Virus record (IMG/VR): IMGVR_UViG_3300029309_000006
Span: 1-64,000 of that record
Source: a virus
Length of the DNA: 64,000 bases
Strand: one strand, 5' to 3'
Positions 1-32,107 of this stretch are shown piece after piece (position 1 is the first letter of the stretch; each line of letters starts with the position of its first letter). Both the position numbers and the translations under genes were made by a program. Under the pieces are notes generated by a model, which saw nothing but the letters and a program-made list of their open reading frames with translations, was not told the origin of the DNA and did not search any database.

Positions 1-300
1 ATGACCTAGGTTACGTAGGCATAAATGAAACGAGCCCTAGCAATAAATTACAAATTTCAGATAGTACAGTAGGAACAGATTCAACAGCAGATGATAGCAA
101 TTTTATAAAATTAACAAACAAAGATATTGGAACAGCAAATGAGGTATGGGGTTTAGGTTTTTCTAGCGAATCAGGTGGAACTGATTACTTAGGTGGCTTT
201 GTTCAAGCGTTAGGCAATTTCGCCAGTAACTTCAACACTTCTTTAATATTTGGAACTAGAGGAACCTCAGGGAATGCCACAGAAAGAATGAGGATAGATA
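1..300 (+). repeat. Direct repeat, copy 1 (fibre segment)
   Basis: Bases 1-167 match 30327-30493 without a mismatch or gap. The match continues to about 300 with scattered substitutions (first at 168, G versus A) and no indel, then falls away except for the short GNVGIG-coding motif. The reading frame is preserved. It may extend left of the window. It is either a duplicated or exchanged fibre domain, or the overlap at which two genomes were joined in assembly. Confidence 0.95.
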
Positions 301-2360
301 GCTCTGGAAACGTAGGAATTGGAGTGTCAAACCCACAAAATTTATTAAGCTTATCTAAAGCCGGTGGTGCTAATATAAGATTTGACAACCCTACCACTAA
401 TAGACATTTTGTAATTGGCGAAGGCGTTGGTTCACCTGATAAATTTTCATTTAGAGGTCTCGGTTACCGAAGCACCGATACAATGACAATTGATTTTACT
501 AATGATCGAGTTGGAATTAGTACTCATTCGCCTGGCAGAAAATTAACTGTAGCTGGTGATGTATCAGGAGATGCAAACAACTTACTTTTATCAAATGAAA
601 ATGATACTAATGGTGATACTGCTAGTATTGGATTTAGTATGCTTAGCAATAATACTTTTGTTAAGTCAGGTATTTTCTTTGAAAGAACAACTACTCAAGG
701 TAGAGGAAGTTTGCATTTAGCTGTTAATAATGAAGCTAATAGCAATAATGTTAGTAAAAGCGATGCAAAATTAACCATTGACACCTCAGGAAATTTATCT
801 CTTGCAACTGCAACATCTTTAGATTTTAATGTAGCTGATTTTGCACAAATTAGATTTAAAGAATCGGCAGCTATAACTATTGATTCAGACAATAATCAAT
901 CAAGTAGAAATTTTCAAATTAAAGATGGTAGTGGCTCAAGTTTATTAACAATATTAGATACAGGGGATGCAACTTTTGCAGGTAACGTAAAAATAGGAAC
1001 TTCAACAACTGGCACACCATCAACAAACGCGGATGATTTAGTTATAGACAAAGGAGCAACTGAATCAGGAATTACTTTAATTTCAACTAATGCTGCTACT
1101 TTAAGATTTGGTGATGCTGCTAATACTTCAATTGGTTTTATAGAATATAATCATAATTCAAATTATATGCGATTTGGCACTAATGCCGCAGAAAGAATGC
1201 GAATAAACAGTTCAGGAAACGTAGGAATTGGTGCTCAATCAGGCGGAACTTTAAATAATATACTACAAGTATCTTCGGGAACAAATGCGGATGGTATTAT
1301 ATTAACAGGTATTGGAGATAGCTCAGGTTTAGCAAATGGAAATTATAGAAGAATAGGTTTTAGATTTGATGAAACAGATGAAAGTTTTGAAAGTGAAATA
1401 AGATTTGTAGTTACAGATCAAAATGCCCACGGCGGTCAAATGCAATTTGTTACTGACAACTCATCTGGAACAAAATCAATAGCAATGACTATTGACAAAA
1501 ATCAAAACGTAGGAATTGGAACTACGATACCCTGGCTTCCCCTTATGATACAAAAAGCATCATCATCTACAAGTCAATCAGCAGATTCATCATTTCGATT
1601 ATGTTTAAGTAACTCTGACCAAACTAATAATAATTATGCTTTAATTTCTTTTATTGATGGTGATGGCAACCCAGGAAGTGCATATATGGGCTGTCAATAT
1701 GTTGACCATACTAATAATTATGGAGATATACTTTTTGGTACAAGAAGTGCATCAGGATTATCAGAAAAAAAGCGTATTACAAGTGCGGGATTCACTAAAG
1801 CAAAAACAGGTGGTAATTATTTTGGTGGTTCTTATCACGAATTTTGTAATAACAATAATGTAAGTGGAGATAGAGTTATGGTACTTGGAAATACAGGAGG
1901 TAGTGCTACAAATAATACCTCAAGTATTGCTTTAACTGTTGCTGATAATGCTAATGATAGATTAAAGATTTTTGGAAATGGTAATGTAGTAAATTTAAAT
2001 AATTCTTATGGTGCAAGTTCAGATATTAAATTAAAAGAAAACATAGTAGATGCTACTTCAAAATTAGATGACTTAATGAAGGTTAAGATTCGTAATTATA
2101 ATTTTATTGGAGATGATAAAAAACAAATTGGCGTAGTTGCTCAAGAATTAGAAGATATATTTCCTAATATGATTGATGAATCTATTGATTATGAATATAA
2201 AAAAATTAAAGATAAAGAGGGTAATATAACTGAAGAAAATATAGATTTAGGAACTACTACAAAATCAGTTAAATATTCCGTATTCGTTCCAATGTTAATA
2301 AAAGCAATACAAGAACTAAAAGCAGAAATTGAAACTTTAAAAACACAAATAAATAAATAA
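3..2360 (+). CDS. Tail fibre with C-terminal S74 chaperone domain (5' partial)
   Basis: The reading frame is open from base 3 to the stop at 2360, so the gene starts outside the window; the first in-frame ATG (288) is internal. The body contains repeated beta-structured fibre segments with the 'SGNVGIG' motif. The last ~110 residues (from 'SDIKLKENI' through 'IGVVAQELE' to a terminal coiled coil) match the peptidase S74 intramolecular chaperone, which trimerises and then cleaves itself off fibres. Bases 1-167 are identical and in frame to 30327-30493 inside another fibre gene, so this is probably the missing 3' part of the fibre starting at 29048. It heads the lysis cassette. Confidence 0.85.
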   Translation, partial: DLGYVGINETSPSNKLQISDSTVGTDSTADDSNFIKLTNKDIGTANEVWGLGFSSESGGTDYLGGFVQALGNFASNFNTSLIFGTRGTSGNATERMRIDSSGNVGIGVSNPQNLLSLSKAGGANIRFDNPTTNRHFVIGEGVGSPDKFSFRGLGYRSTDTMTIDFTNDRVGISTHSPGRKLTVAGDVSGDANNLLLSNENDTNGDTASIGFSMLSNNTFVKSGIFFERTTTQGRGSLHLAVNNEANSNNVSKSDAKLTIDTSGNLSLATATSLDFNVADFAQIRFKESAAITIDSDNNQSSRNFQIKDGSGSSLLTILDTGDATFAGNVKIGTSTTGTPSTNADDLVIDKGATESGITLISTNAATLRFGDAANTSIGFIEYNHNSNYMRFGTNAAERMRINSSGNVGIGAQSGGTLNNILQVSSGTNADGIILTGIGDSSGLANGNYRRIGFRFDETDESFESEIRFVVTDQNAHGGQMQFVTDNSSGTKSIAMTIDKNQNVGIGTTIPWLPLMIQKASSSTSQSADSSFRLCLSNSDQTNNNYALISFIDGDGNPGSAYMGCQYVDHTNNYGDILFGTRSASGLSEKKRITSAGFTKAKTGGNYFGGSYHEFCNNNNVSGDRVMVLGNTGGSATNNTSSIALTVADNANDRLKIFGNGNVVNLNNSYGASSDIKLKENIVDATSKLDDLMKVKIRNYNFIGDDKKQIGVVAQELEDIFPNMIDESIDYEYKKIKDKEGNITEENIDLGTTTKSVKYSVFVPMLIKAIQELKAEIETLKTQINK

Positions 2361-2362
2361 TT

Positions 2363-2686
2363 ATGGCAAATACATACGAATGGCGAATAAACTGTTTAGA
2401 CACTAAAATTAAGCAAGATAAAAAAAGTAATGTAGTATATAACGTACATTGGTCTTACATAGCTAAGGATGATTCAGAAACGCCTTATATGGCAAGTTCT
2501 ATAGGTACTTATGGTGTAACTTATGATAAATCTAATTTTATTACATATTCTAAGCTTACAAAAGAAGATGTGGTAGGTTGGCTTGAAGCAGGGTTAGATG
2601 TAGATTCTATGAAAAAAAGTTTAGATAATCAAATTGAATTACAAAAAAATCCTGTCGATAATCATTTGAAGCCAAACTGGGATTAA
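2363..2686 (+). CDS. Fibre-associated protein, DUF7936-like
   Basis: A 107-residue soluble protein starting 3 bp after the fibre stop. It is homologous by eye to the 118-residue protein at 37357-37713: shared features are the N-terminal 'TY.W.IN', a 'VHW.Y' motif near residue 30, a 'GWLE..LDV' motif and 'SL..NI.LQ' before the C-terminus. Both copies lie immediately downstream of fibre genes, so a role in fibre assembly or the virion is an inference. I recall the family as the phage domain DUF7936; that assignment needs a profile search. Confidence 0.6.
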   Translation: MANTYEWRINCLDTKIKQDKKSNVVYNVHWSYIAKDDSETPYMASSIGTYGVTYDKSNFITYSKLTKEDVVGWLEAGLDVDSMKKSLDNQIELQKNPVDNHLKPNWD

Positions 2687-2712
2687 TTATATTTACATAA
2701 AAAATATATATT

Positions 2713-2961
2713 ATGAAAAATTTAGAAAAAAGCGAACACGATTACATAAAAGGTTTATTTGATGAAAATGCTAAAAACTATATGAGTATTGGTCAAGACC
2801 AAGAAAATATAAAAATATTAGAAGCAAGAATAAACAATACAATAAATAAAAATTTAGAGAACAAAAAAGACCTTGATAAATATTTAAAGAACTTAGAAAC
2901 TAAGTATGGCAAAATAAATATCAATATGCAAGATGGGTCTTATGAAGAAATAGAAGAATAA
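2713..2961 (+). CDS. Small coiled-coil protein of the lysis region
   Basis: An 82-residue, charged, mostly helical protein ending in 'YGKININMQDGSYEEIEE'. The 85-residue protein at 46443-46700 has the same layout and a matching tail ('YGSVNINLTDGTY'), so this is a family conserved between the two phages of the window. No membrane segment. It precedes membrane and lysis genes here and follows the holin-like gene there. Function unknown; a lysis accessory role is suggested only by position. Confidence 0.6.
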   Translation: MKNLEKSEHDYIKGLFDENAKNYMSIGQDQENIKILEARINNTINKNLENKKDLDKYLKNLETKYGKININMQDGSYEEIEE

Positions 2962-3101
2962 TGGGATTAGCAGATATGAAGTTATATATTATTAATACAG
3001 TTGTCTTTGCTGTGACAATGACAGAGATCGAAACGTGGTTAAAAATTATTCTTCTTATCTGCACTATTATTTACACGATAATGAAAATAAAAAAAATGTA
3101 A
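2961..3101 (+). CDS. 46-residue single-span membrane protein
   Basis: The ATG overlaps the previous stop as TAATG. The 46 residues contain a hydrophobic helix (about residues 28-42, 'WLKIILLICTIIYTI') followed by a Lys-rich end. Size and position in the lysis cassette fit a small holin or lysis accessory protein, but no family is recognised. It is followed by another membrane protein after one base. Confidence 0.55.
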   Translation: MGLADMKLYIINTVVFAVTMTEIETWLKIILLICTIIYTIMKIKKM

Positions 3102-3102
3102 A

Positions 3103-3420
3103 ATGGCAACTAAGATAAGTGAAGATACTAACGTACAATTAGATTTAAAAACTATAGGATTAATTATAGGAGGTACTATATCTCTTGCAAGTATGTACTT
3201 TACTTTAAAATCTGACATTGATGCTTTAAATTCTAAAATAGAAAATTTTAGTGGAGATGAATTTGTACAAAAAATGGAATTTCAACTAAAGGATGAATTG
3301 ATTAGAGCAAACGTAATACAGATAGATAAAGCTACAAAAGATTTAAAAGAAGATATAGAAGAAAATAAAGAAGCGATAAAAATTAATTCAGAAAAAATTT
3401 ATGAAAACAAAAGAAGATGA
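3103..3420 (+). CDS. Membrane-anchored coiled-coil protein, lysis region
   Basis: 105 residues: a short N-terminus with 'LDLKTIGLIIGG', one transmembrane helix at about residues 16-37, then a long charged coiled coil. It is a paralogue of the 94-residue protein at 4235-4519, which shares 'LDLKTL.LLIGGI.SL' and the same anchor-plus-coil layout. An N-terminal anchor with a periplasmic coil resembles i-spanins or holin accessory proteins; this is inference. Its stop overlaps the next start (ATGA). Confidence 0.55.
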   Translation: MATKISEDTNVQLDLKTIGLIIGGTISLASMYFTLKSDIDALNSKIENFSGDEFVQKMEFQLKDELIRANVIQIDKATKDLKEDIEENKEAIKINSEKIYENKRR

Positions 3421-3764
3421 AACATTTAATATATGTCCTTTTTGTGTTATTTGCATTTGCAAAAACTAATGCACAAGACTTAACATTATTGCATATAAAT
3501 GCTAAGTGGAATGAAAGCAATAATTACAATTTAAGAGGAATAAAAGGTGCTAAAATACAAATGGCTTATTTAGAAGATCAAAGTTCTTCTATTAAATCAC
3601 AAATTAAATCTGTACCAACTATAATACTTTTAGATAAAAATGGCAAACCAAGAGGTCAATGGAAAGCAGGTTTAAGTTTTGTAATAACAGCAACACAGGA
3701 AGAAATACAAAATCGTATAAATGTAATTATGTTAGAAAACACAAGGCGTAGGTCAACAAATTAA
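3417..3764 (+). CDS. Exported thioredoxin-fold-like protein without CxxC
   Basis: 115 residues with a typical signal peptide (Lys, hydrophobic 'LIYVLFVLFAFA', cleavage after 'TNA'). The mature part has 'SVPTIILLDKNGKPRGQW', the cis-proline strand signature of thioredoxin folds, but no CxxC redox pair. A redox role is therefore unlikely; a binding or chaperone role in the periplasm is possible. It overlaps the upstream gene and lies 6 bp before the endolysin-like gene. Confidence 0.5.
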   Translation: MKHLIYVLFVLFAFAKTNAQDLTLLHINAKWNESNNYNLRGIKGAKIQMAYLEDQSSSIKSQIKSVPTIILLDKNGKPRGQWKAGLSFVITATQEEIQNRINVIMLENTRRRSTN

Positions 3765-3770
3765 TAAATT

Positions 3771-4235
3771 ATGATTAGTCAACATATATCAGAAAAAGAA
3801 GCAACTAAAAGCATTACTGCTTTACGTTTAGGTATTGACAACACCCCAAACGGAGATGCAATAAGTAATATGAAAGAGTTAGCAGAAAAAGTATTTGAAC
3901 CTCTTAGGGCTTGGGTAGGTGGTGCAATAAAGATAAATAGTTTTTATAGATCACCTGCATTAAACGAAGCTATTGGTGGCAGCAGTAGAAGCCAACATTG
4001 TAAAGGACAAGCTATGGATATTGATGACATTTACGGACACAAAACAAATGCAGAAATGTTTAAGTTTATTAAAGATGAACTTAATTATGACCAAATGATA
4101 TGGGAATTTGGAAACGAAGATAATCCTGACTGGGTTCACGTTTCATATGTAAGCGAAGATAAAAATAGAAATAGAATATTAAAAGCTGTTAGAGATGATG
4201 GTAAAACTAAATACATAGATATTACAAATAGCTAA
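3771..4235 (+). CDS. Endolysin-like M15A peptidase
   Basis: 154 residues matching the zinc D,D-/L,D-carboxypeptidase family M15A used by phages to cut peptidoglycan cross-links. Visible features are 'INSFYRSPALN' (residues 55-65), the zinc motif 'SQHCKGQAMD' with His76 and Asp83, and 'WVHVSY' with His123 as the third ligand. No signal peptide, so export depends on a holin. A second copy, roughly 60 percent identical by eye, is at 41165-41629. The stop overlaps the next ATG (TAATG). Confidence 0.85.
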   Translation: MISQHISEKEATKSITALRLGIDNTPNGDAISNMKELAEKVFEPLRAWVGGAIKINSFYRSPALNEAIGGSSRSQHCKGQAMDIDDIYGHKTNAEMFKFIKDELNYDQMIWEFGNEDNPDWVHVSYVSEDKNRNRILKAVRDDGKTKYIDITNS

Positions 4236-4519
4236 TGGGAATAGAGGAGAAAAAAATAGGATTAGATATAGATAGTGACGGAAAGCCTGATCTTAATTTA
4301 GATTTAAAAACATTAATACTTTTGATTGGTGGTATATCTTCATTGATATTTACATATACAACTTTACAATCAGATATAGAATCTGCAAAGCTTTTACCAC
4401 CACAACAAGACATATCTAAAGTAGAACAAAAGGTAGAATTTTTAGAAAACAAAATAGAAAACATAGAAAAACAACACGACAGAAGACTTGATAATATCGA
4501 GAAAAAAGTGTTTAAGTGA
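4235..4519 (+). CDS. Membrane-anchored coiled-coil protein, paralogue of 3103-3420
   Basis: 94 residues: an N-terminal cytoplasmic stretch with 'DIDSDGKPDLNLDLKT', a transmembrane helix at about residues 27-43, and a C-terminal coiled coil ('VEQKVEFLENKIENIEKQ'). It resembles 3103-3420 in sequence around the membrane segment. Two such proteins flank the M15 peptidase, consistent with lysis accessories or spanin-like pairs (inference). It ends in TGA overlapping a GTG start. Confidence 0.55.
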   Translation: MGIEEKKIGLDIDSDGKPDLNLDLKTLILLIGGISSLIFTYTTLQSDIESAKLLPPQQDISKVEQKVEFLENKIENIEKQHDRRLDNIEKKVFK

Positions 4520-4605
4520 GAGATTTATTTGACATATTGTTAAGTTTTTTAATTATAATGATTGCTTTATCTGTCACTATATTACCTTTAATGTTTCAAT
4601 TATGA
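4516..4605 (+). CDS. 29-residue membrane peptide (GTG start)
   Basis: The GTG at 4516 overlaps the upstream stop as GTGA, and the stop overlaps the next ATG as ATGA (4602-4605). The 29-residue product is almost wholly hydrophobic ('LLSFLIIMIALSVTILPLM'). Tight coupling at both ends argues that it is translated. It could be a holin component or antiholin; no homology is claimed. Confidence 0.5.
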   Translation: MRDLFDILLSFLIIMIALSVTILPLMFQL

Positions 4606-5009
4606 AAAATATATTAGCAAAAATATTTGGTGGTGCAGGTGGTGGCATAGCAAACTCTATAAGTGGTATAATAGATAAGCATACATTTAGTAAAGAAGAA
4701 AAAGCTAGGTTTGAAAAAGAAATGACAGAAGTGTTTATTAATGCAGAAGCAGATATGCAACAGAATGTTACTGAAAGGTGGAAAGCAGACCTTGAACACG
4801 GAAACACACTTACTAAATCAGTTAGACCTATAGTGCTTTTGTTTCTTATAATATCTACTGTGCTATTAGTATTTATAGATTCAGGAAGTATAAACTTTAA
4901 CGTAGAAGAAAAATGGACTGATCTATTACAGCTTGTACTAATTACAGTAATTGGTGCATACTTTGGTGGTCGTAGTATAGAAAAAGTAAAAAATGCCAAA
5001 AAAAATTAA
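4602..5009 (+). CDS. Holin-like membrane protein
   Basis: 135 residues: a Gly-rich amphipathic N-terminus ('IFGGAGGGIANS'), a helical charged segment, then two clear transmembrane helices at about residues 75-92 and 106-123. This layout matches the GTA-type 3TM holin group, and a homologue with the same architecture lies at 45975-46427 (150 residues; shared 'R....W..DL' and 'TR.I/M.L.FL..S'). It would permeabilise the inner membrane for the M15 peptidase. Confidence 0.6.
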   Translation: MKNILAKIFGGAGGGIANSISGIIDKHTFSKEEKARFEKEMTEVFINAEADMQQNVTERWKADLEHGNTLTKSVRPIVLLFLIISTVLLVFIDSGSINFNVEEKWTDLLQLVLITVIGAYFGGRSIEKVKNAKKN

Positions 5010-5127
5010 CGTAAGTATATACAAATCCAATGCCAAAAAGCGTAAAGGCATACACGCTAAAAGCAAAAGCAGTAAATTAAAATCAAGCAAAAATTACTTA
5101 AAAAAATATAGAGGTCAAGGTAGATAA
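4993..5127 (+). CDS. 44-residue Lys-rich protein
   Basis: ATG at 4993 inside the end of the holin-like gene; 44 residues, about 40 percent Lys/Arg, ending 'YLKKYRGQGR'. Very basic, Ser/Lys-rich and without hydrophobic segments, so possibly nucleic-acid binding. I recall similar short 'KKYRGQG'-ending proteins in other Bacteroidota phages, but a search is needed. It closes the lysis cassette. Confidence 0.5.
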   Translation: MPKKINVSIYKSNAKKRKGIHAKSKSSKLKSSKNYLKKYRGQGR

Positions 5128-5294
5128 TATTTTTTTTATATATTTGTTTTTGCTTATAGCTAAACTTCAAGAACCTAATAAAGTTGGACACTTGTTGGAA
5201 CAGGTACTACAAATTTTCTTTTTGTAGGCTTTTTCTTTTCTTTTTCTTTGCTTACTTTCTTTTTCTTTTCTTTTAATTATAATACATTTATAGT
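5128..5294. other. Intergenic region with polypyrimidine tract
   Basis: 167 bp between the lysis cassette and the NinG-like gene. It contains TATATTTG (5139-5146, a match to the Bacteroidota -7 element but with no upstream TTTG at the right distance) and a striking run of T and C at about 5214-5274 with only about six purines. No gene is seen. Confidence 0.6.
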
Positions 5295-5699
5295 ATGAGA
5301 AAAATAACTCGTAAAGGACTTATTAAAAGACTAGATACTGTATTTTCAGAATACATAAGAAAGAAAAATGCAGATAGTAGAGGGTATGTTACCTGTATAA
5401 CATCAGGTCGTAAATACCACTACAGCGAAGTAGATGCAGGTCACTTTATATCACGTAAAGAAATGTCTACTAGGTGGCACGAAGACAATGTACACCCACA
5501 ATCAAGATACGATAACAGATACAGATACGGAAAGCAATATGAATACGGACTTGCACTAGATAATAAAAAAAAAGGTCTTGCTAAAAGACTATATAAACTA
5601 TCTAAACAAACTGTAAAGTATTCAGTAAACGACTTACAAGAATTACTAGATAAATACAAAAAACTATTGCACAACGAAAATAAAAGGTTATCTTTGTAG
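5295..5699 (+). CDS. NinG/Rap-like recombination protein with altered zinc site
   Basis: 134 residues. The core 'DAGHFISRKEMSTRWHEDNVHPQ' region (about residues 48-70) is the signature of the lambda NinG/Rap family, structure-specific nucleases that help resolve recombination intermediates. The usual zinc cysteines are mostly absent: family members carry CxxC before the core and QCxxCN after it, while this protein has 'CITSG' and 'PQSRYDN'. It is followed by a terminator. Confidence 0.7.
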   Translation: MRKITRKGLIKRLDTVFSEYIRKKNADSRGYVTCITSGRKYHYSEVDAGHFISRKEMSTRWHEDNVHPQSRYDNRYRYGKQYEYGLALDNKKKGLAKRLYKLSKQTVKYSVNDLQELLDKYKKLLHNENKRLSL

Positions 5700-5733
5700 A
5701 ACTTATCAATCTTTGATATAGTTGTTTTGTTTT

Positions 5734-5765
5734 AAGGGGAGAATTAATTTTTTCCCCTTTTTTTT
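5734..5765 (+). terminator. Rho-independent terminator after NinG-like gene
   Basis: AAGGGGA ... TCCCCTT stem (5734-5740 with 5753-5759) followed by a T run to 5765. It directly abuts the promoter at 5763-5793 and so separates the lysis/NinG transcript from the early operon. Confidence 0.8.
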
Positions 5766-5793
5766 GTTTATTAACATTTTTTAATTATATTTG
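5763..5793 (+). promoter_or_regulatory. Bacteroidota-type host promoter for the early operon
   Basis: TTTG at 5763-5766 and TATATTTG at 5786-5793, spaced 19 bp, match the Bacteroidota housekeeping consensus (TTTG near -33, TAnnTTTG near -7). Transcription would begin near 5800, just before the ATG at 5810. It is the strongest promoter-like site in the window and would let the host polymerase start the replication operon. Confidence 0.8.
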
Positions 5794-5809
5794 TATAAAA
5801 CAAAACATT

Positions 5810-5929
5810 ATGAATAAAGCAAATAAACAATTAATTAAAACTTTACTTAAATGCTACAAAGAAGGTAGTATAGATGCTAAACTTACAGCAGACACAATTT
5901 ATAGAATAATTAAAAACGAAACAAAATGA
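5810..5929 (+). CDS. 39-residue first early-operon protein
   Basis: First ATG after the promoter. 39 residues, helical and mildly basic, with 'LIKTLLKCYKEGSIDA'. Its stop overlaps the next ATG (ATGA). Function unknown; it could be a small host-takeover protein, judged only from being first in the early operon. Confidence 0.55.
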   Translation: MNKANKQLIKTLLKCYKEGSIDAKLTADTIYRIIKNETK

Positions 5930-6063
5930 ATCACTTATTATATGTACCAGACCTACTATCACACGAATGTGTTATGTGTGGCAAACCAATGGAAGATGAA
6001 ACTTATCACAAACAAGGTGGTTACTGTTCATCAAGTTGTTTAACTACAGATATTGAATTATGA
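5926..6063 (+). CDS. 45-residue zinc-ribbon-like protein
   Basis: Coupled by ATGA to the genes on both sides. It carries 'CVMC' (residues 15-18) and 'CSSSC' (34-38), a four-Cys arrangement that suggests a small zinc ribbon, perhaps binding nucleic acid or a host protein. No family is recognised. Confidence 0.55.
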   Translation: MNHLLYVPDLLSHECVMCGKPMEDETYHKQGGYCSSSCLTTDIEL

Positions 6064-6227
6064 ATATGCACTTATCAAAAGAAGATTTCAATAAAGAAAT
6101 TGTAAGACTAAACAACAGAATAGATTTTCTTTGTAAGCATATATCACAACAAGATAAAAAGATAGAAAATTTAGAAATAATTAATAAATTAGTAAAAAAT
6201 AAATACAAGAAACTAAACTCAATATAA
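6060..6227 (+). CDS. 55-residue coiled-coil protein
   Basis: ATG at 6060 overlaps the previous TGA. 55 residues, strongly helical and charged ('IVRLNNRIDFLCKHISQQDKK'), predicted coiled coil without a membrane segment. It precedes the next gene by one base. Function unknown. Confidence 0.5.
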   Translation: MNMHLSKEDFNKEIVRLNNRIDFLCKHISQQDKKIENLEIINKLVKNKYKKLNSI

Positions 6228-6228
6228 A

Positions 6229-6636
6229 ATGAAACACAAAGCACAAATTAAAAAAATATACAAACAAGATAAACCACCATTTGGAGATGGTATCTTAACT
6301 TATAAAATAGAAACAACTAAACATACAGCTTATTATTATACTTCTAAAATATCTTTTAATGAAGGAGATGAAGTTGAATATGATTATCTCCAACAAAAAA
6401 ACGGAGACTATAAATTTAAAGATTTAAAAAAATCAAGTATGTTTAGCAACTATACAAAAGATAAAGATGTTGAATATATAAACAAACAAGACAATAAAGA
6501 AGATAATATACATTTTCAATCTGCAAGGAGAGACTTTGCAATACTAAATCAAGGCAGGGGTTTATCTGCACAAGAAATACACGAAGGTGGACTTGAGATA
6601 TATAAATTACACAAACAAATTAAAAATCAATTATAA
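6229..6636 (+). CDS. Early protein of unknown function
   Basis: 135 residues. The N-terminal ~65 residues look beta-rich (alternating charged and hydrophobic, 'YYYTSKISFNEGDEVEYDY'), possibly a small barrel; the C-terminal half is helical and polar. It sits directly before the SSB-like gene, so a role in DNA metabolism is plausible, but I do not recognise the family. Confidence 0.6.
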   Translation: MKHKAQIKKIYKQDKPPFGDGILTYKIETTKHTAYYYTSKISFNEGDEVEYDYLQQKNGDYKFKDLKKSSMFSNYTKDKDVEYINKQDNKEDNIHFQSARRDFAILNQGRGLSAQEIHEGGLEIYKLHKQIKNQL

Positions 6637-6642
6637 ATAATT

Positions 6643-12413: not shown

Positions 12414-12662
12414 ATGGATGGTAGAAAAAACAATGGAGGACACTCTACAAAAGGCAGAGCAGGTAGAAAACCAAAGACAGAAGAAATACAACTTATAGAA
12501 AAACTTACACCTTTAGAACCATTAGCTTTTGCAGCATTGAAAGAAGGATTGAAGAATAAAGACTTTAAGTTTGTACAACTTTATTATAATTATGTAGCAG
12601 GTAAACCAAAAGAAACAAAAGACATTCATATAAACGAAGATGTACCATTATTTATTGATTAA
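12414..12662 (+). CDS. Small terminase subunit (TerS-like)
   Basis: 82 residues with a basic Gly-rich start ('GGHSTKGRAGRKPK'), typical of DNA-binding small terminases, and a helical body ('LAFAALKEGLKNKDFKFVQLYY'). The next gene is the large terminase, overlapping as TAATG. The protein is short for TerS, so the call depends largely on position. Confidence 0.6.
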   Translation: MDGRKNNGGHSTKGRAGRKPKTEEIQLIEKLTPLEPLAFAALKEGLKNKDFKFVQLYYNYVAGKPKETKDIHINEDVPLFID

Positions 12663-13828
12663 TGTTTAACCAAACAAAAGCTGTTAAAAGATTAAGAGAA
12701 TTAAACAATCGTATTCGTATTATTAGAGGAGGTTCATCAGCAGGTAAAACTATTGCTATTCTAATGATACTTATTGACTATGCAATTAAGAATCCTTACA
12801 AAGAAATAAGCGTAGTAGCAGAAAGTATTCCCCACTTACGTAGAGGTGCTTTAAAAGACTTTCTAAACATTCTAAAGGTAACGCTTAGGTACGATGAAAG
12901 AAAGTTTAACAAAAGTACCTTAAAATACGAATTTAGTAATGGTAGTTATATAGAGTTCTTTAGTACAGACCAACCTGATAGACTAAGAGGTGCAAGACGT
13001 ACAGACTTATTTATAAACGAATGTAACAATATAGACTTTGAATCTTATCAACAATTAGCAGTAAGAACATCAGGAGACATTTGGCTTGACTATAATCCTG
13101 CAAACTTATTTTGGGTAGACAAAGAACTTATAGGACAAAAAGATACAGACTTTATTACACTTACTTATAAAGACAATGAAAGCCTACCTGAATCTATAAT
13201 AAAAGAAATAGAGAAAGCAAAAATAAAAGCAAAGACAAGTACATACTGGTCTAACTGGTGGAAAGTATATGGTCTTGGAGAAATAGGAAGTTTGGAGGGT
13301 GTTTGTATTCCTGATTGGAAAAGCATTGATAATATTCCTTATGAAGCTAGATTACTTTGTGGAGGACTTGATTTCGGATTTGCTGTAGACCCTAGCTGTA
13401 TTATTTTTTTATACAAGTGGAACGAAGCATATATATTTGATGAAGTGCTTTATCGAAAAGGAATGTTAAACAGAGACATTAGTAGATTCTTAAAAGACAA
13501 TAACATCACCACCCACCTGTGGGCAGATTCAGCAGAACCAAAAAGTATAAGCGAGATAAGAGCTTACGGACATAAAATAGCAGGGGTTTCAAAAGGTAGA
13601 GATTCAGTAATATATGGTATTAACCTAATAAACCAAAACGAAATATATGTAACCTCCAAATCAAAAAACTTAATAAAAGAATTACAGGGTTATGTATGGG
13701 CAAAAGACAAAGAGGGTAACAACATTCAGAAACCTACAGGGTCGCATCCTGATTGTATTGATGCAGCTCGATATGCTTTAATGATGCAACTACAAAACCC
13801 CAACAGAGGTAAATATGCAATAAGATAA
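12662..13828 (+). CDS. terL: Large terminase subunit (phage A)
   Basis: 388 residues, PBSX-type terminase. Walker A 'GGSSAGKT' at 23-30, Walker B 'LFINE' at 116-120, and the RNase H-like nuclease with 'GLDFGFAVDP' (Asp237, Asp243), 'WADS' (Asp289) and 'HPDCIDAARYA' near the end. It packages DNA into proheads and cuts it to size. Full length for the family. It is unrelated to the second large terminase at 47749-49971. Confidence 0.9.
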   Translation: MFNQTKAVKRLRELNNRIRIIRGGSSAGKTIAILMILIDYAIKNPYKEISVVAESIPHLRRGALKDFLNILKVTLRYDERKFNKSTLKYEFSNGSYIEFFSTDQPDRLRGARRTDLFINECNNIDFESYQQLAVRTSGDIWLDYNPANLFWVDKELIGQKDTDFITLTYKDNESLPESIIKEIEKAKIKAKTSTYWSNWWKVYGLGEIGSLEGVCIPDWKSIDNIPYEARLLCGGLDFGFAVDPSCIIFLYKWNEAYIFDEVLYRKGMLNRDISRFLKDNNITTHLWADSAEPKSISEIRAYGHKIAGVSKGRDSVIYGINLINQNEIYVTSKSKNLIKELQGYVWAKDKEGNNIQKPTGSHPDCIDAARYALMMQLQNPNRGKYAIR

Positions 13829-23744: not shown

Positions 23745-23748
23745 TATT

Positions 23749-24339: not shown

Positions 24340-24358
24340 ATAAATAAAAATAATAATT

Positions 24359-24775: not shown

Positions 24776-24799
24776 TAATTAAATAAATAAAAAAAAGAT

Positions 24800-25696
24800 A
24801 TGGCTACTACTACTTCAATTACTACTTCTTACCAAGGGGAATTTGCAGGTGATTACATCGCTGCAGCACTTCTTTCAGGGGTGACTTTATCACAAGGAGG
24901 AGTAACAATAAAACCAAATATTAAATTTAAAGAGGTTTTGAAAAAACTCTCAATGGATTCAATTCTAAAGGATGCTTCCTGTGACTTTGACCCATCGAGT
25001 AACGTAACTTTAACTGAAAGGATTCTACAACCAGAAGAATTTCAAGTTAACTTACAATTATGTAAAAAAGATTTCAGACAAGATTGGGAAGCTAACTCAA
25101 TGGGATTCAGTCAATATGACAATCTACCGAGTAAGTTTTCAGACTTTTTAATTGCACAAGTTGCAGCTAAAGTTGCTGAAAAAGTAGAACAAAACATTTG
25201 GCAGGGTGCTACTGCAAATGCAGGAGAATTTAACGGATTCCAAGCATTACTTGCAGCAGACGGAGACGTTGTTGATGTTTCAGGTACTACACTTTCGGCT
25301 TCAAACATCGTTGCTGAGATTTCAAAAGTTGTTGATGCAATTCCTAGCGGGGTCTATAATAAAGAAGATTTAAAAATCTATATTCCTACAAGTGCTGCTA
25401 AGTTTTATATTCAAGCACAAGCAGCTTTAGGTTATAGAGAACTATATAACGTAGGTAAAACTGAAATGAATTTCCAAGGTATTCCATTATTTACTGCACC
25501 TGGATTAGGAGCAGATAAAATGGTTGCAGCACAATCAAGCAATCTTTACTTCGGTACAGGTCTATTAAATGACTGGCAAGAAGTTAAGCTTATTGATATG
25601 GCTGATATTGACGGAAGTCAAAATGTAAGAGTTGTACTAAGAGGATCTGCAGGTGTAAATCACGGAATAGGTGCAGATATAGTACTTTATTCTTAA
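24800..25696 (+). CDS. Major capsid protein (phage A)
   Basis: 298 residues. The layout fits an HK97-fold capsid protein: N-terminal arm, 'ILQPEEFQVNLQLCKKDF', 'AEKVEQNIWQGA' long helix (about residue 125-137), 'IYIPTSAAKFYIQAQA' and a C-terminal 'VRVVLRGSAGVNHGIG'. It follows scaffold and decoration genes and is followed by a strong terminator, typical for the most highly expressed gene. Confidence 0.75.
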   Translation: MATTTSITTSYQGEFAGDYIAAALLSGVTLSQGGVTIKPNIKFKEVLKKLSMDSILKDASCDFDPSSNVTLTERILQPEEFQVNLQLCKKDFRQDWEANSMGFSQYDNLPSKFSDFLIAQVAAKVAEKVEQNIWQGATANAGEFNGFQALLAADGDVVDVSGTTLSASNIVAEISKVVDAIPSGVYNKEDLKIYIPTSAAKFYIQAQAALGYRELYNVGKTEMNFQGIPLFTAPGLGADKMVAAQSSNLYFGTGLLNDWQEVKLIDMADIDGSQNVRVVLRGSAGVNHGIGADIVLYS

Positions 25697-25710
25697 TAAT
25701 TGTTTAACAT

Positions 25711-25748
25711 AAAAGGGTAGGTGGGTTTTACCTACTTACCTTTTTTTT
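25711..25748 (+). terminator. Terminator after major capsid gene A
   Basis: GTAGGT (25717-25722) pairs with ACCTAC (25730-25735) around a 7-nt loop, with flanking A and an eight-T tract from 25741. Confidence 0.85.
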
Positions 25749-25762
25749 AAAAATATATATAT

Positions 25763-26287
25763 ATGGCGTGTACACTTACAAAAGGGCGTGAACTACCTTG
25801 CAAATCAGGGGTTGGTGGAATAAAAAGTATAACATTTGCTGACTTTAATACTTTAGGAGCTTTAACTGTTGCAAATGACATAATTACTGATTTCGGTGGA
25901 AGTCCTACATTTATGAAGTTTGATGTAAAGGGTAATTCTACAATGGACACTACTGTAACATCATCAAGAGAAAACGGAACTACTTTTTATGAAACAACAG
26001 TAGTAATGAATTTAATCTTCCAAGAGGAAAAAACACAAGCAGAAATTAAATTACTTGCTGTTTCAAGACCTCATATTATAGTAGAAGATTATAACGGAAA
26101 CTTTAGACTTGTTGGAAAAGATCACGGATGCGAATTAACAACTGGGACATTTTCAAATGGAGCTGCGATGGGAGACCTTTATGGCTACTCACTTACATTT
26201 GTTTCACAAGAAACAGAAGCACCTGACTTTGTTGCTACAGCAGCTTACAATGCTGAAAGTCAAGGAACACAAATTGACGTAAATTAA
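25763..26287 (+). CDS. Major tail tube protein
   Basis: 174 residues, beta-rich. 'CTLTKGRELPCKSGVGGIKSI' at the start and 'GDLYGYSLTFVSQETEAPDFV' near the C-terminus fit tail tube proteins of Bacteroidota siphophages. It is isolated between two terminators (25711-25748 and 26311-26340), as expected for an abundant structural protein. Confidence 0.6.
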   Translation: MACTLTKGRELPCKSGVGGIKSITFADFNTLGALTVANDIITDFGGSPTFMKFDVKGNSTMDTTVTSSRENGTTFYETTVVMNLIFQEEKTQAEIKLLAVSRPHIIVEDYNGNFRLVGKDHGCELTTGTFSNGAAMGDLYGYSLTFVSQETEAPDFVATAAYNAESQGTQIDVN

Positions 26288-26310
26288 GAATAGTTTGTTC
26301 TTGTTATTGG

Positions 26311-26340
26311 AAAAGGGGGTTTTATACCTCCTTTTTTTTT
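26311..26340 (+). terminator. Terminator after tail tube gene
   Basis: AAAAGGGGG (26311-26319) pairs with CCTCCTTTT (26327-26335) through one wobble around TTTTATA, with T extending to 26340. Confidence 0.85.
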
Positions 26341-26368
26341 GCTTTATTACAAAATCACTATATTATTT

Positions 26369-26376
26369 CGATATAT
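26369..26376 (+). promoter_or_regulatory. CGATATAT motif, 4 bp before 26381 start
   Basis: Context TATTATTTCGATATATTAATATG; 4 bp to ATG 26381 and 28 bp after a terminator, so new transcription must begin in this gap. This arrangement repeats that at 14452. Confidence 0.65.
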
Positions 26377-26380
26377 TAAT

Positions 26381-26746
26381 ATGAAAGTATTGACTACAAG
26401 TAGTTCAGCACAAACTTTAGATGTAGTTCCTAGAACTTATATTTCTAGCTATACAATGAAACTTAGAGATACAAGCAAAAATAAAGAAGTATTTAGTTCA
26501 TCTGTAACTGGAATTACAAATGGTAATTTTAAAAGAATATCTGCAACTATAAGCCCTATATTAAAAGAGGGTAGGTATTATGATTTAACTTTACTAAATG
26601 GAGCTACAGTAGTATATAGAGATAAAATATTTTGCACAGATCAAACTATAAATCAGAACAACAATGATTATTACGAAATAAATTCAGGTCAATATACTTT
26701 TGATGAAACAGCAGGGTCACACGATAACGATTATATAATAGTATGA
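26381..26746 (+). CDS. Small virion protein upstream of portal
   Basis: 121 residues from ATG 26381; the frame is open further upstream but only through the terminator and motif. Beta-rich ('YTMKLRDTSKNKEVFSSS', 'YYDLTLLNGATVVYRDKIF'), resembling a small Ig- or sheath-like domain. The stop overlaps the portal start (ATGA). Likely a minor head or tail protein; function unknown. Confidence 0.55.
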   Translation: MKVLTTSSSAQTLDVVPRTYISSYTMKLRDTSKNKEVFSSSVTGITNGNFKRISATISPILKEGRYYDLTLLNGATVVYRDKIFCTDQTINQNNNDYYEINSGQYTFDETAGSHDNDYIIV

Positions 26747-28482
26747 ACGATTTAAGAGTTTTAAATTTAAGCAGTTACACAACACCAAAAGTAACAGAAC
26801 AAAAAAATAGAGATTGGATTGGGTATGGAGAGGATAACAATTACTTTAAATATCTAATTGACAGATACAACGGAAGTCCTACCAATAACGCTATTATAAA
26901 CGCTGTTTCTGCGATGATCTATGGTAAAGGATTAGATGCTACCGATTCAAATAAAAAGCCTGAACAGTACGCTAAAATGGTTTCTTTGTTTAACAAGGAC
27001 TGCACAAGAAAACTTTGTTACGATTTAAAACTTATGGGTCAATGTTCAATGCAAGTAATATATTCAAAGGATAGAAAAACAATAGCACAGATAGAACACT
27101 TTCCTGTAGAAACATTAAGAGCAGAAAAAGCAAATGAAAAAGGAGATATAGAAGCTTATTATTATTTTTCAGATTGGTCTAATTTTAAATCTACAAGTAA
27201 AGCAAAAAGAATACCTGCTTTTGGAATGAGTAAGGAATCTATAGAAATACTTTATGTTAAACCTTATAGAGCAGGATTTTATTATTATAGTCCAGTAGAC
27301 TACCAAGGTGGCTTACAATATAGCGAACTAGAAGAAGAAGTAGGAAACTTCCATTTAAATAATATTATGAATGGTATGTCTCCAAGTATGTTAATTAATT
27401 TTAACAATGGTACACCAACAGAAGAAGAAAGAGAAAGAATAGAACATCGTATAATGCAAAAGTTTTCAGGCAGTAGTAATGCAGGTAAATTTATATTAGC
27501 ATTTAACGACAATGCAGATACAGCAGCAAGTATAGACCCAGTACAATTATCAGATGCACACCAACAATATCAGTTTCTAAGTGAAGAAAGTACAAGAAAG
27601 ATAATGGTATCTCACAGAATTGTATCTCCAATGCTTATAGGTATTAAAGATCAATCAGGACTTGGAAACAATGCTGATGAATTAAAAACAGCATCTATAT
27701 TACTTGACAATACAGTTATTAGACCTTTTCAGCATTTGCTTATAGAAGCATTTGACCAAATATTAGCTTATAATAAAATATCGCTTAACCTATACTTTAA
27801 AACTTTACAACCATTAGAATTTACAGACCTAACAAATGTAGAAGATGAAGAAACTAAAGAAGAAGAAACAGGTGTAAAATTAAGTGAAGATGTATGTAAT
27901 CATAATCATTTTAATTTAAGCGAAGATGAAATGACTACAATAGCAGATGATATTATTTCAAAAGGAGAAGATATAGGGGATGATTGGGAGTTGTTAAATG
28001 AAACACCTGCTCTAAATGATGAAACTGAAATAAAAGATTATTTTGAGTTTGCAAGGGTTGTAAGTGGAGATGCAAGAAAAAAAGACGAACAAGACACAAG
28101 TCTATTTAGAATAAGGTATAAATATACAGCAGGAAGATCAACCAAAGGAGAATCTAGGGAATTTTGTAAAAAAATGTTAGCTGCAAATAAAGTTTACAGA
28201 ATGGAAGATTTAGATAAACAAAGTACAGCAAATAGTGAACTTGCAGCAAAAGGCGAAAACAGCTACAATATCTGGCTTTTTAAGGGCGGAGTGAACTGCT
28301 CCCATTATTGGATGCGACAAATATATCTTAAAAAAGGTAACAAAAAAATATCAGTAGGCAGAGCAAGAAGTATAATAAGTGCTTTACCTAGAAACGAAAG
28401 AAAAGATGCAAGGTTTGAAACAAACCCACCTGAGGTTTCTCAAATAGCATCAGCAAGAAATAATTATTGGAGAAAAAATTAA
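26743..28482 (+). CDS. Portal protein (phage A) with extra C-terminal domain
   Basis: 579 residues. The first ~370 are a portal body ('GSPTNNAIINAVSAMIYGKGL', 'HFPVETLRAEKAN', 'RIVSPMLIGIKDQSGLGNNADEL'). An acidic linker leads to a separate C-terminal domain (about 430-579) with 'TKGESREFCKKMLAANKVYR', 'NIWLFKGGVNCSHYWMRQIYL' and a NPPEV motif, which I recall from flavophage head proteins. It forms the dodecameric DNA gate. Confidence 0.75.
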   Translation: MNDLRVLNLSSYTTPKVTEQKNRDWIGYGEDNNYFKYLIDRYNGSPTNNAIINAVSAMIYGKGLDATDSNKKPEQYAKMVSLFNKDCTRKLCYDLKLMGQCSMQVIYSKDRKTIAQIEHFPVETLRAEKANEKGDIEAYYYFSDWSNFKSTSKAKRIPAFGMSKESIEILYVKPYRAGFYYYSPVDYQGGLQYSELEEEVGNFHLNNIMNGMSPSMLINFNNGTPTEEERERIEHRIMQKFSGSSNAGKFILAFNDNADTAASIDPVQLSDAHQQYQFLSEESTRKIMVSHRIVSPMLIGIKDQSGLGNNADELKTASILLDNTVIRPFQHLLIEAFDQILAYNKISLNLYFKTLQPLEFTDLTNVEDEETKEEETGVKLSEDVCNHNHFNLSEDEMTTIADDIISKGEDIGDDWELLNETPALNDETEIKDYFEFARVVSGDARKKDEQDTSLFRIRYKYTAGRSTKGESREFCKKMLAANKVYRMEDLDKQSTANSELAAKGENSYNIWLFKGGVNCSHYWMRQIYLKKGNKKISVGRARSIISALPRNERKDARFETNPPEVSQIASARNNYWRKN

Positions 28483-28483
28483 A

Positions 28484-28993
28484 ATGGCAACAGCATTATT
28501 CATAAAACCGATTGACTTAAAAAGAAACTCTATAATAGACGGAAACGTAGATGTTGACCACTTCCTTGGCTTTCTAAAGATCGCACAGGAAATTCACATT
28601 AGAAACTATCTAGGAACGGATTTATACAATAAAATAAGCACAGACATAATTGGTACTGGTGGAGCATCGCTAACAGGTAATTATTTAAACCTTGTAAACG
28701 ACTATATACAGCCTATGCTTATACACTTTGCTATGGTTGATTATTTGCCTTTTGCAAGTTACAGGCTTAAAAATGGTGGACTTAGTAAACCAACAAGTGA
28801 AAACAGCGAATCTGTTACAAAAGAAGAAGTGGACTATTTAGTACAAAAACACAGAAATATAGCAGAATATTATACAACAAGATTTATAGACTATATGAGT
28901 TTTAATCAAAGTTTATTTCCTGAGTATAATACTAATACAAATGATGATATTCATCCTGATAAAGATGCTCTATTCAATGGTTGGGTATTATGA
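28484..28993 (+). CDS. Head-tail adaptor, DUF6712-like
   Basis: 169 residues: 'FIKPIDLKRNSIIDGNVDVDHF' and 'KIAQEIHIRNYLGTDLYNKI' match the pattern of the DUF6712/gp6-like connector that binds under the portal. It follows the portal by one base. Mostly helical with a C-terminal 'YYTTRFIDYM' helix. Confidence 0.65.
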   Translation: MATALFIKPIDLKRNSIIDGNVDVDHFLGFLKIAQEIHIRNYLGTDLYNKISTDIIGTGGASLTGNYLNLVNDYIQPMLIHFAMVDYLPFASYRLKNGGLSKPTSENSESVTKEEVDYLVQKHRNIAEYYTTRFIDYMSFNQSLFPEYNTNTNDDIHPDKDALFNGWVL

Positions 28994-29112
28994 AGTATAA
29001 AGTAAAGAAAAAAAATATTGACAAATTATTAACATATTTAAAGAGTAATGGCAACATTAACAAACACACAAATATCGGTAACGTATGTAGGGTTATTAAA
29101 GACAAGTGCTAG
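28990..29112 (+). CDS. Possible 40-residue basic peptide
   Basis: ATG at 28990 overlaps the adaptor stop (ATGA) and the frame runs to a TAG at 29112, overlapping the fibre start by 65 bp. The first half ('KYKVKKKNIDKLLTYLKS') is plausible protein; the second half lies inside the fibre gene. The long overlap makes translation doubtful. Confidence 0.3.
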   Translation: MKYKVKKKNIDKLLTYLKSNGNINKHTNIGNVCRVIKDKC

Positions 29113-32107
29113 TACAGTACTAAGTTCTACTGCTCAACAAATTACTGATGGTTCAGGCAATAATAGTATTTTATTTCTATCTACAGCAGGAGTTGGAATA
29201 GGTGGTGCTGCTAGTGCAGGTAAAGAATTTGAAGTTACAGGTAACGCTAAAATTACAGGAGACCTTATAGTAGATAACATAAAGATAGATGCCAATACTA
29301 TTTCTGCTGAAACTGGTGTTGTTACTCTAGCAGATGGTGCTATTGCTACAACTCAAAGTGCAAGTGATAATTCTACTAAAATTGCTACGACTGCATATGT
29401 AGATGCTCAGGTTACTGCTCAGGACTTAGATTTTAGTGGTACATCAGGCACAGGTTCAGTTGATTTAGATTCTCAAACATTTGCTGTAGTAGGTACTGCT
29501 AATGAAATTGAAACATCTGCAGGTAGCCAACAGTTACAAATAGGACTTCCCAATGATGTGACAATAAGTAATAAATTAACTGTTAATACTAACTTAGAAA
29601 TAGAAGATAATCACATTAACCAAACGACTGGTCAACTTAAAATAGAATCAGCAGATAGTATAGTATTAGATGCTACTGGTGATATTGTTTTTAAAGATAA
29701 TAATCAACAGTTTGCAAAGTTTGTAAACACTAATGGTATTTTATCAATTGAATCTACCCTAAAAAAACAAGCAAGTTTTGCTGACACAGGAGTTGAATTA
29801 TATGCAAATGATGTTAAAAAATTAGAAACCGAAGATGCAGGAGTTACAATAATTGGTGCTTTAAATGTTGATAGTGTGACTTCTACAGGTGGTGCAACTT
29901 TTGGAGGAACAGTAACTACTTCACAAATAACTAGCAGTGGTAATTTTACTATTGATTCAGCATTACAAATTATACTTGATGGTGCTGATGATGGTTCAAT
30001 ACAATTAAAAGATGATGGCACTCTATATGGTCTTATATATTCAACTTCAGATGACTTTTATATTAAATCAACAGTTTCTGATGGAGATATTATTTTTCAG
30101 GGTAATGATGGGGGTGTAGGTAAAACAGTTTTAACGTTGGATATGTCTGAAAATGGCAATGCAACTTTTGCAGGTGAGGTAAAATTGCAGTCAAGTAATG
30201 CTTTTACAACATTAAGAACTGGTAATGATTTTGGTTGGAGTATATATGCTAATTCAAGTAATTTTTTAACTTTTGGAACTGGAGCAGCAGCTAATACAAA
30301 AGCAACAGATTGGGTGACCATTCGAGATGACCTAGGTTACGTAGGCATAAATGAAACGAGCCCTAGCAATAAATTACAAATTTCAGATAGTACAGTAGGA
30401 ACAGATTCAACAGCAGATGATAGCAATTTTATAAAATTAACAAACAAAGATATTGGAACAGCAAATGAGGTATGGGGTTTAGGTTTTTCTAGCAAATCAG
30501 GTGCAACTGATTACTTAGGTGCCTTTGTTCAAGCGTTAGGCAATTTCACTAGTAACTTCAACACTTCTTTAATATTTGGAACTAGAGGAACCTCAGGGAA
30601 TGCCACCGAAAGAATGCGAATTAACAGTTCTGGAAAAGTAGGAATCGGAGAAACAGCACCTGCCGCTAAACTAGATGTTAAAGTTGCTTCAAATGAACAT
30701 TTTTTAGTTAGTGATTCTTTATCTACTGTATCATTAAAAGCTACTAATGATGCCGCTGCTGCTTACGTTCCAATGTCAATTAATGGTTCAGCTTTAACTA
30801 TAAATGCTGATTCTGGTGGAAACGTCGGGATTGGAACTGCTTCGCCTGGTTATAGACTTTCAGTAGCTAATGCATCAACTAGAATTGTATCAATAAATTA
30901 TCAAGATAGTATAAATACAATTATGTCTCATGCGGGTTCACCTAATTATGGTTTAGAAGCATTAACTATTAGAGGAGATTATATAGCTTTTTATACAGAT
31001 TATGACGTTAGTCATTATCAAGGTGTTGAAAGAATGCGTATAACATCTGCAGGACAAGTTAATATACATCCTATAAACGATACAAGTGAGACACTTAGAG
31101 TTTTTAGAGGTACTGGTGCATTTGCTTCTCAATCAATTTCTATTGATGCAAAAAGTGGTGATGCAAATATTAGATTACTTGCAACTGATACTGCAAGGTC
31201 AACTGTATTTTATAGGTCATCAGATGGAGGTAGTAATTTTACAGAAAGTATGCGTATAGGCAGTAATGGAAATATTGCTCAAGCAAATACAAGTCCAATA
31301 GCTGACCCTTTTGTCAATGGTGCAGAACAATGGATGACTTACCAAATTGGAAAAGCAGGAGTATTAGGTGCATACAAAAATAATAATGAAAGTATGTTTG
31401 GTTTTAATACATATTTTTCAGCACCAAGTGGAGTAAATAAAGCAATAGTTTCTGGTTTAGATGGAACTGCAACAAGATATTATGCTGATAGAATTACATT
31501 TAATACTTTAACAAGTTCTGGAACTACTCAAACGCAAACAGAAAGAATGCGTATTACATCTGGGGGTAACATTAACATAGGTTCTGGTGGTTTAACACAA
31601 ACTGCATATCAATTAAGAGTAGATTCTGATTTTGATAATGGTATTTATTTGAGTGCAGCTTCAGGAAACGATAGTGCATTGTATATTGATAATGGAGCTG
31701 GAACTGCAGAATTATTTATAGTTAGAGGAGATGGAAATATAAAAATACCTGGAATTGGTGTTACTACTGGTGCTACTGCTGTTGGAGTAGATTCAAGTGG
31801 TTTTATTAGAAAGTTATCATCATCAAAAAGATATAAAAAAGATATTGAGTCAATTGATATAGGTTTAGATTTTATAAATTCTTTAAGTCCAGTTAAGTTT
31901 AAAATGAAAGAAGATGATGTTGAAAGTGTTGGATTAATTGCTGAAGATATGATTGACAATAGGTTTGTTACATATTCACAAATTGATATGAAAGATGAAT
32001 CTAAAGGTTTGCAAGTCGAGGGGGTTAATTATCAAGCACTAATAGCACCATTAATTAAATCAATCCAAGAACTAAAAGCAGAAATAGAATTATTGAAAAG
32101 TAAATAA
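29048..32107 (+). CDS. Tail fibre with S74 chaperone domain, probable A/B hybrid frame
   Basis: 1,019 residues: an N-terminal virion-binding part ('SVTYVGLLKTSASTVL'), repeated fibre segments, and a C-terminal S74 chaperone ('SSKRYKKDIESIDIGLDF', 'VGLIAEDMIDNRFV', terminal coiled coil). Codons 427-482 are encoded by bases identical to 3-167 of the window. The gene is intact, but if the window is a join, the 5' part is phage A's and the 3' part phage B's. In A the true continuation would be 168-2360. Confidence 0.75.
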   Translation: MATLTNTQISVTYVGLLKTSASTVLSSTAQQITDGSGNNSILFLSTAGVGIGGAASAGKEFEVTGNAKITGDLIVDNIKIDANTISAETGVVTLADGAIATTQSASDNSTKIATTAYVDAQVTAQDLDFSGTSGTGSVDLDSQTFAVVGTANEIETSAGSQQLQIGLPNDVTISNKLTVNTNLEIEDNHINQTTGQLKIESADSIVLDATGDIVFKDNNQQFAKFVNTNGILSIESTLKKQASFADTGVELYANDVKKLETEDAGVTIIGALNVDSVTSTGGATFGGTVTTSQITSSGNFTIDSALQIILDGADDGSIQLKDDGTLYGLIYSTSDDFYIKSTVSDGDIIFQGNDGGVGKTVLTLDMSENGNATFAGEVKLQSSNAFTTLRTGNDFGWSIYANSSNFLTFGTGAAANTKATDWVTIRDDLGYVGINETSPSNKLQISDSTVGTDSTADDSNFIKLTNKDIGTANEVWGLGFSSKSGATDYLGAFVQALGNFTSNFNTSLIFGTRGTSGNATERMRINSSGKVGIGETAPAAKLDVKVASNEHFLVSDSLSTVSLKATNDAAAAYVPMSINGSALTINADSGGNVGIGTASPGYRLSVANASTRIVSINYQDSINTIMSHAGSPNYGLEALTIRGDYIAFYTDYDVSHYQGVERMRITSAGQVNIHPINDTSETLRVFRGTGAFASQSISIDAKSGDANIRLLATDTARSTVFYRSSDGGSNFTESMRIGSNGNIAQANTSPIADPFVNGAEQWMTYQIGKAGVLGAYKNNNESMFGFNTYFSAPSGVNKAIVSGLDGTATRYYADRITFNTLTSSGTTQTQTERMRITSGGNINIGSGGLTQTAYQLRVDSDFDNGIYLSAASGNDSALYIDNGAGTAELFIVRGDGNIKIPGIGVTTGATAVGVDSSGFIRKLSSSKRYKKDIESIDIGLDFINSLSPVKFKMKEDDVESVGLIAEDMIDNRFVTYSQIDMKDESKGLQVEGVNYQALIAPLIKSIQELKAEIELLKSK
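30327..30626 (+). repeat. Direct repeat, copy 2 (fibre segment)
   Basis: Bases 30327-30493 are identical to 1-167; similarity continues to about 30626 with scattered substitutions and no gaps. The segment encodes part of the fibre shaft including 'SPSNKLQISDSTVG'. Confidence 0.95.

What the first reader, a model, noticed from the sequence alone, without database searches (positions are those of the whole stretch)
1..30626. Bases 1-30,326 close into a circle: the window is probably two phage genomes joined at a shared fibre segment
Seen: 1-167 is identical to 30327-30493, in the same reading frame, with similarity to about 300. Two unrelated TerL, portal, capsid, M15, holin and scaffold genes are present, which no single phage carries. 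Joining 30493 to 168 gives one intact fibre ORF of about 1,212 codons and a 30.3-kb genome with a full siphovirus gene set. Inference: an assembly join (or a rare cointegrate) of phage A and phage B at a fibre segment both share.
Basis: partly seen in the sequence, partly recalled or inferred. Interest (0 to 1): 0.75.

Follow-up and report, generated by a model that had tools for sequence, protein, structure and literature searches.

The report
Two phage genomes misjoined in assembly
The sequence is almost certainly not one virus but two unrelated marine phages that the assembly software glued together at a short piece of tail-fibre gene both carry; the join is an artefact, while the shared fibre piece is real but of a known kind.

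Summary
The window is bases 1-64,000 of a 95,752-base metagenomic virus record. The repeat is real: 1-167 equals 30327-30493 exactly, in frame, falling to 92% over 168-300 and ending near 324. Phage A (1-30326) closes on itself: relatives in several other metagenomes run without a break from 29.0-29.3 kb through a fibre to 2.3 kb. Phage B (30327-95752, 65.4 kb) is also about one genome: two relatives of 64.5 and 65.8 kb have 127-base identical ends, a relative (MW202828) is deposited as circular at 60.9 kb, and two further contigs run from the 84-91 kb genes through fibres into 31-38 kb genes. The record stops inside a B fibre whose N-terminus (MANLSNIN) matches the next B fibre, so ORF 29048-32107 joins an A head to a B tail. 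The joining module occurs naturally in an A-like and a B-like contig, 97% identical over 521 bases, so its sharing is real and the fusion is best explained as an assembly path through a shared segment. Reads were not available. Verdict: artefact; ordinary cross-phage sharing of a fibre module.

The parts
1..30326 (+). Phage A, one whole genome opened inside its tail-fibre gene (about 30.3 kb, circular by inference)
   Evidence: Relatives L007, L008, L009, L030 and G003 are continuous across the closure (29.0-29.3 kb -> fibre -> 2.3-3.1 kb)
30327..64000 (+). First part of phage B (continues to 95752 in the record; 65.4 kb in all)
   Evidence: Record length 95,752; relatives G005 64.5 kb and G006 65.8 kb with 127-nt identical ends, G009 68.9 kb, MW202828 60.9 kb circular
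1..167 (+). Segment R, copy 1: identical to copy 2; the record begins with it; in A it continues into 168
30327..30493 (+). Segment R, copy 2: the point where phage A passes into phage B
   Evidence: step from 100% to 91.7% identity at 167/168
168..324 (+). A's version of the rest of the shared fibre module
   Evidence: 91.7% to B, 97.7% to the A-like contig L186 over 168-300
30494..30650 (+). B's version of the rest of the shared fibre module
   Evidence: The B-like contig L187 carries this module followed by sequence matching 31028-31251 (94%) and 31707-31862 (87%)
29048..30493 (+). N-terminal part of A's tail fibre
   Evidence: Start conserved in A relatives to about 29292-29400; joined to 168 it gives 1,212 codons
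168..2360 (+). C-terminal part of A's tail fibre, ending in a Peptidase_S74 chaperone domain
   Evidence: PF13884 E=2.2e-10
30494..32107 (+). C-terminal part of a B tail fibre with Peptidase_S74; its N-terminal part is inferred to be 95313-95752 of the record, beyond the window
   Evidence: PF13884; 95313 ORF starts MANLSNIN like the fibre at 32108; 146 + 593 aa plus a gap compares with 804 and 774 aa for the two neighbours
29048..32107 (+). Chimeric ORF: A fibre head fused to B fibre tail, not expected to exist in nature
32108..34522 (+). B tail fibre 2 (Peptidase_S74)
34524..36848 (+). B tail fibre 3 (Peptidase_S74)
12662..13828 (+). A terminase large subunit
   Evidence: PF04466/PF17288, phrog_2
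26743..28482 (+). A portal protein
   Evidence: phrog_33693 E=8e-126
47749..49971 (+). B terminase large subunit
   Evidence: phrog_6681 E=8e-164
49968..52349 (+). B portal protein
   Evidence: phrog_6547 E=2e-148
3103..4519 (+). A lysis-type cassette (two one-TM proteins, an exported protein that looks thioredoxin-like by eye, an M15 endolysin), homologous to B genes at 73331-74262 (outside the window) and 41165-41629
   Evidence: 53-69% aa identity; PF08291
41165..41629 (+). B M15 endolysin, homologue of A's 3771-4235
   Evidence: 69% aa; PF08291

Best explanation
The record is a chimeric metagenomic contig. Two complete, unrelated Bacteroidota-type phages, A (about 30.3 kb) and B (about 65.4 kb plus a small gap), each circular or circularly permuted, carry a nearly identical tail-fibre module acquired by horizontal exchange. 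The assembler represented the identical stretch (R, 167 bases) once. It started at R, went round all of A, re-entered R, and then left by the B exit instead of closing A. It ran round B and stopped just before it would have reached B's own R. Shown: the R-A-R-B layout, closure of A and order of B in relatives, and natural occurrence of the module in both lineages. Inferred: that the assembler and not a cell made the join, and that a shared graph edge is why the exact match is 167 bases.
For: R-A-R-B layout with R at the record's first base. A closes in L007/L008/L009/L030/G003. B-type genomes are about 61-69 kb, two with 127-nt end repeats and one deposited as circular. G009 runs from homologues of 91057 and 91727 straight to homologues of 37807 and GroEL (38138); L187 runs from homologues of the 84-90.7 kb genes through the module to 31.9 kb. 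The record ends inside a B fibre beginning MANLSNIN like B's next fibre, and the C-terminal half sits at 30327-32107. The module is shared at 96.7% over 521 nt between A-like L186 and B-like L187. Identity drops abruptly from 100% to 91.7% at base 168; 167 identical bases at that divergence has probability about 5e-7. Chimeric contigs are known in virome assembly: usually under 5% of contigs of 10 kb or more in a benchmark (PMC5610896).
Against: No reads or assembly graph could be examined. The record's end (95752) does not reach R, so B's closure is inferred from relatives and is missing a stretch whose length is 2 modulo 3 if the fibre is intact. The assembler and k-mer size for this record are unknown; 167 is not a standard k, so a shared graph edge longer than k, or a recent real exchange, must be assumed.
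Confidence: 0.94

Rival explanations
1. A real cointegrate: phages A and B recombined at the shared fibre module in a co-infected cell, giving a physical 95-kb molecule.
For: The two lineages do exchange DNA: shared fibre module and homologous lysis genes, so they probably meet in the same hosts. Homologous recombination at R would give this same layout.
Against: No A-like contig above 33.7 kb or B-like contig above 68.9 kb among the best 80 of each. The molecule would be far over either head's normal load and carry duplicate, incompatible morphogenesis sets (general phage knowledge). The end at 95752 does not return to R.
Confidence: 0.03
2. A single large phage genome with two structural gene sets.
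For: One uninterrupted ORF (29048-32107) crosses the join.
Against: Each half alone matches the whole genome of independent relatives, in circular order; two TerL/portal sets without similarity.
Confidence: 0.01
3. B does not truly carry R; the second copy (30327-30493) is simply A's own sequence running into a B contig end by a loose overlap.
Against: 30494-30650 is itself a 92% version of the same module, and the B-like L187 has the module followed by B's downstream sequence, so B does carry the module; only the exact bases of B's first 167 are uncertain.
Confidence: 0.02

Closest known systems
Chimeric contigs in viral metagenome assembly (benchmarked in PMC5610896; modular phage genomes and repeats noted as causes in PMC10563150)
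   Same: Two genomes joined at a stretch that both carry; repeat at the contig start and at the junction
   Different: Unusually clear: two whole genomes in series, with the joining module seen natively in both lineages
Tail-fibre modules shared by distantly related phages (Alteromonas phages A5, V22, P24; PMC10579305)
   Same: Unrelated phages carry a homologous receptor-binding segment
   Different: Here a 300-520-base internal module of an S74-chaperoned fibre rather than a whole fibre plus chaperone gene set; hosts unknown
Nonlabens phage P12024S/L (genus Inhavirus), for phage A
   Same: Portal 36% aa over 97% of its length, DUF3127 SSB-like gene, similar genome size (35.7 kb)
   Different: Only distant protein similarity; not the same genus by any measure taken here
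Podoviridae sp. ctfjg026 (MW202828) and Flavobacterium 'elemo' podoviruses, for phage B
   Same: TerL 64% and 45% aa; MW202828 also has GroEL, Cpn10, M15, TerL and P22-like portal in the same order
   Different: B is 65 kb with a cluster of S74 fibres; the MW202828 fibre region was not compared

Membership tests
Chimeric metagenomic contig | Sequence from two genomes that exist separately elsewhere | tested here: met
   A-type and B-type relatives occur separately in many other records
Chimeric metagenomic contig | A stretch identical in both, long enough to merge in a k-mer graph, at the junction | tested here: met
   167 identical bases at the contig start and at the junction; 127-nt overlaps in related records suggest k=127 in comparable assemblies
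Chimeric metagenomic contig | Reads support separate closure and not the junction; coverage step | not testable with these tools
   No reads or assembly graph available
Shared tail-fibre module between unrelated phages | Near-identical fibre segment in phages without other close DNA similarity | tested here: met
   L186 vs L187: a single 521-nt block at 96.7%, no other blastn match; A vs B: 324 nt at 95.7%, longest other matches about 70%
Shared tail-fibre module between unrelated phages | Change of host range with the module | not testable with these tools
   No isolates; hosts inferred only from distant relatives among Flavobacteriia phages
Inhavirus (phage A) | Genome-wide DNA similarity to P12024S/L | tested here: not met
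   In the first 8 kb of A only a 265-base match at 67%; portal 36% aa
Cointegrate phage | Same junction, or an over-length A+B molecule, seen in another record | tested here: not met
   No exact hit of the R 43-mer in other viral contigs and no over-length A-like or B-like contig among the best 80 each

The most novel reading that the evidence does not exclude
A real A-B cointegrate formed by recombination at the shared fibre module, captured as a 95-kb molecule: a direct snapshot of how unrelated phages swap fibre modules.
Probability: 0.03. Interest if true: 0.6.

Novelty: not a real feature. Interest (0 to 1): 0.2.

Why it matters
The record should be split before use: counted as one 95-kb phage it gives a false genome, a false double-capsid phage and a false 1,019-aa fibre. 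What is real is modest but useful: two unrelated phage lineages that share a fibre module at 97% identity (L186/L187) and homologous lysis genes, pointing to overlapping hosts and to fibre modules as places where virome assemblies misjoin.

Tried and rejected
Exact search for a 43-base piece of R in viral contigs gave nothing. Direct abutment of 95752 to 30327 is out of frame and hits a stop, so B is not closed end to end in the record. The trinucleotide profile along the record showed no clean step at 30.3 kb and is not used as evidence. GC content likewise shows no clear step. No tRNA genes were found. The first Pfam scan used a wrong frame for the last ORF and was redone.

Full report
Observation. 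Bases 1-167 equal 30327-30493 exactly; over 168-300 the two copies are 122/133 identical, and similarity ends near 324/30650. Every repeated 31-mer in the whole record falls in this segment. The shared frame and the 1,212-codon ORF obtained by joining 30493 to 168 are correct.

Setting. The window is the first 64,000 bases of a linear virus record of 95,752 bases. The remaining 31,752 bases were fetched. So A is 30,326 bases and the rest, B, is 65,426.

A is a whole genome. The A portal has many relatives. In L007, L008 and L009 (93-96% portal identity, different metagenomes) the sequence runs from A's 22-24 kb genes to 29.28-29.29 kb, through a divergent fibre, and straight into A's 2.30 kb and onward. 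L030 and G003 show the same order at lower identity; G002 (33.7 kb) is opened in the fibre just as this record is. None of the best 80 A-like contigs is longer than 33.7 kb.

B is a whole genome bar a small gap. G005 (64.5 kb) and G006 (65.8 kb) have identical 127-base ends, the usual mark of a circular assembly; MW202828 is deposited as circular, 60.9 kb, with GroEL, Cpn10, M15, TerL and portal in B's order. G009 carries homologues of 91057 and 91727 at 19.8-23 kb directly before homologues of 37807 and GroEL at 26.7-27.0 kb. L187 runs from homologues of B's 84-90.7 kb genes through a fibre holding the R module to matches of 31028-31251 (94%) and 31707-31862 (87%). The record's last ORF (95313-95752, open) begins MANLSNIN, like B's fibre at 32108. 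Its 146 residues plus the 593 at 30327-32107 plus a gap make a fibre of the size of its neighbours (804, 774 aa). The join stays open only if the gap is 2 modulo 3. Apart from those first residues the two fibre starts align no better than shuffled sequence, so this point rests on the N-terminal identity alone.

The join. ORF 29048-32107 is therefore an A fibre head on a B fibre tail. The module at the join is native to both lineages: L186 has an A-type portal and fibre start and then the module; L187 is B-type; the two share one 521-base block at 96.7% and nothing else. Weaker copies sit in L188-L190 (74-84% DNA). In L008, an A-like fibre holds a block 77% identical to B's 33384-33640 beside one 82% identical to A's 801-947, so modules move between the two groups more than once.

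Why assembly and not biology. The record starts at the first base of R, passes all of A, meets R again and leaves into B. The exact identity stops abruptly at 167 inside the module, whereas the rest of the module is 8% diverged; at that divergence 167 identical bases would have probability about 5e-7. This is what a shared graph edge used twice would give (inference; the 127-base ends of G005/G006 suggest k=127 in comparable data). A recent exchange limited to this stretch is possible but does not itself argue for a fused molecule. Chimeric contigs are a documented minority product of virome assembly (PMC5610896), and phage modularity and repeats are documented causes (PMC10563150).

TerL, portal and structural proteins of A and B have no detectable similarity by blastp, but the M15 endolysins (69%), two one-TM proteins (65%, 53%), an exported thioredoxin-like protein (63%; fold judged by eye) and DUF7936 genes after the fibres (41%) are homologous. 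This suggests overlapping hosts, probably Flavobacteriia given the named relatives; that is inference.

Verdict. The fused genome is not real (0.94). The shared fibre module is real and of a known kind (compare Alteromonas phages A5, V22 and P24, PMC10579305).

Noticed in passing
window 38138-39697, 39675-39941 and 46927-47532: Phage B carries GroEL, a Cpn10 protein next to it, and a second, longer protein (201 aa) matching a PHROG named co-chaperonin GroES: possibly two co-chaperonins for one phage chaperonin.
   Followed up: partly
window 3103-4519; record 73331-74262 and window 41165-41629: A lysis-type cassette is shared by A and B at 53-69% aa: two one-TM coiled-coil proteins, an exported protein with a thioredoxin-like look, and M15 peptidase.
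   Followed up: partly
L186 3963-4483 and L187 9779-10299: A 521-base fibre block 96.7% identical between an A-type and a B-type phage from other metagenomes, with no other DNA similarity: a recent cross-lineage exchange.
   Followed up: yes
window 44954-45136: In-frame 18-base repeats in ORF 44255-45142 coding for MKDPMK-type units; no Pfam match.
   Followed up: no
G006 55135-56685 and G010 3951-5489: The search output counts stop codons inside the matched stretch of the phage GroEL homologues in these two records.
   Followed up: no
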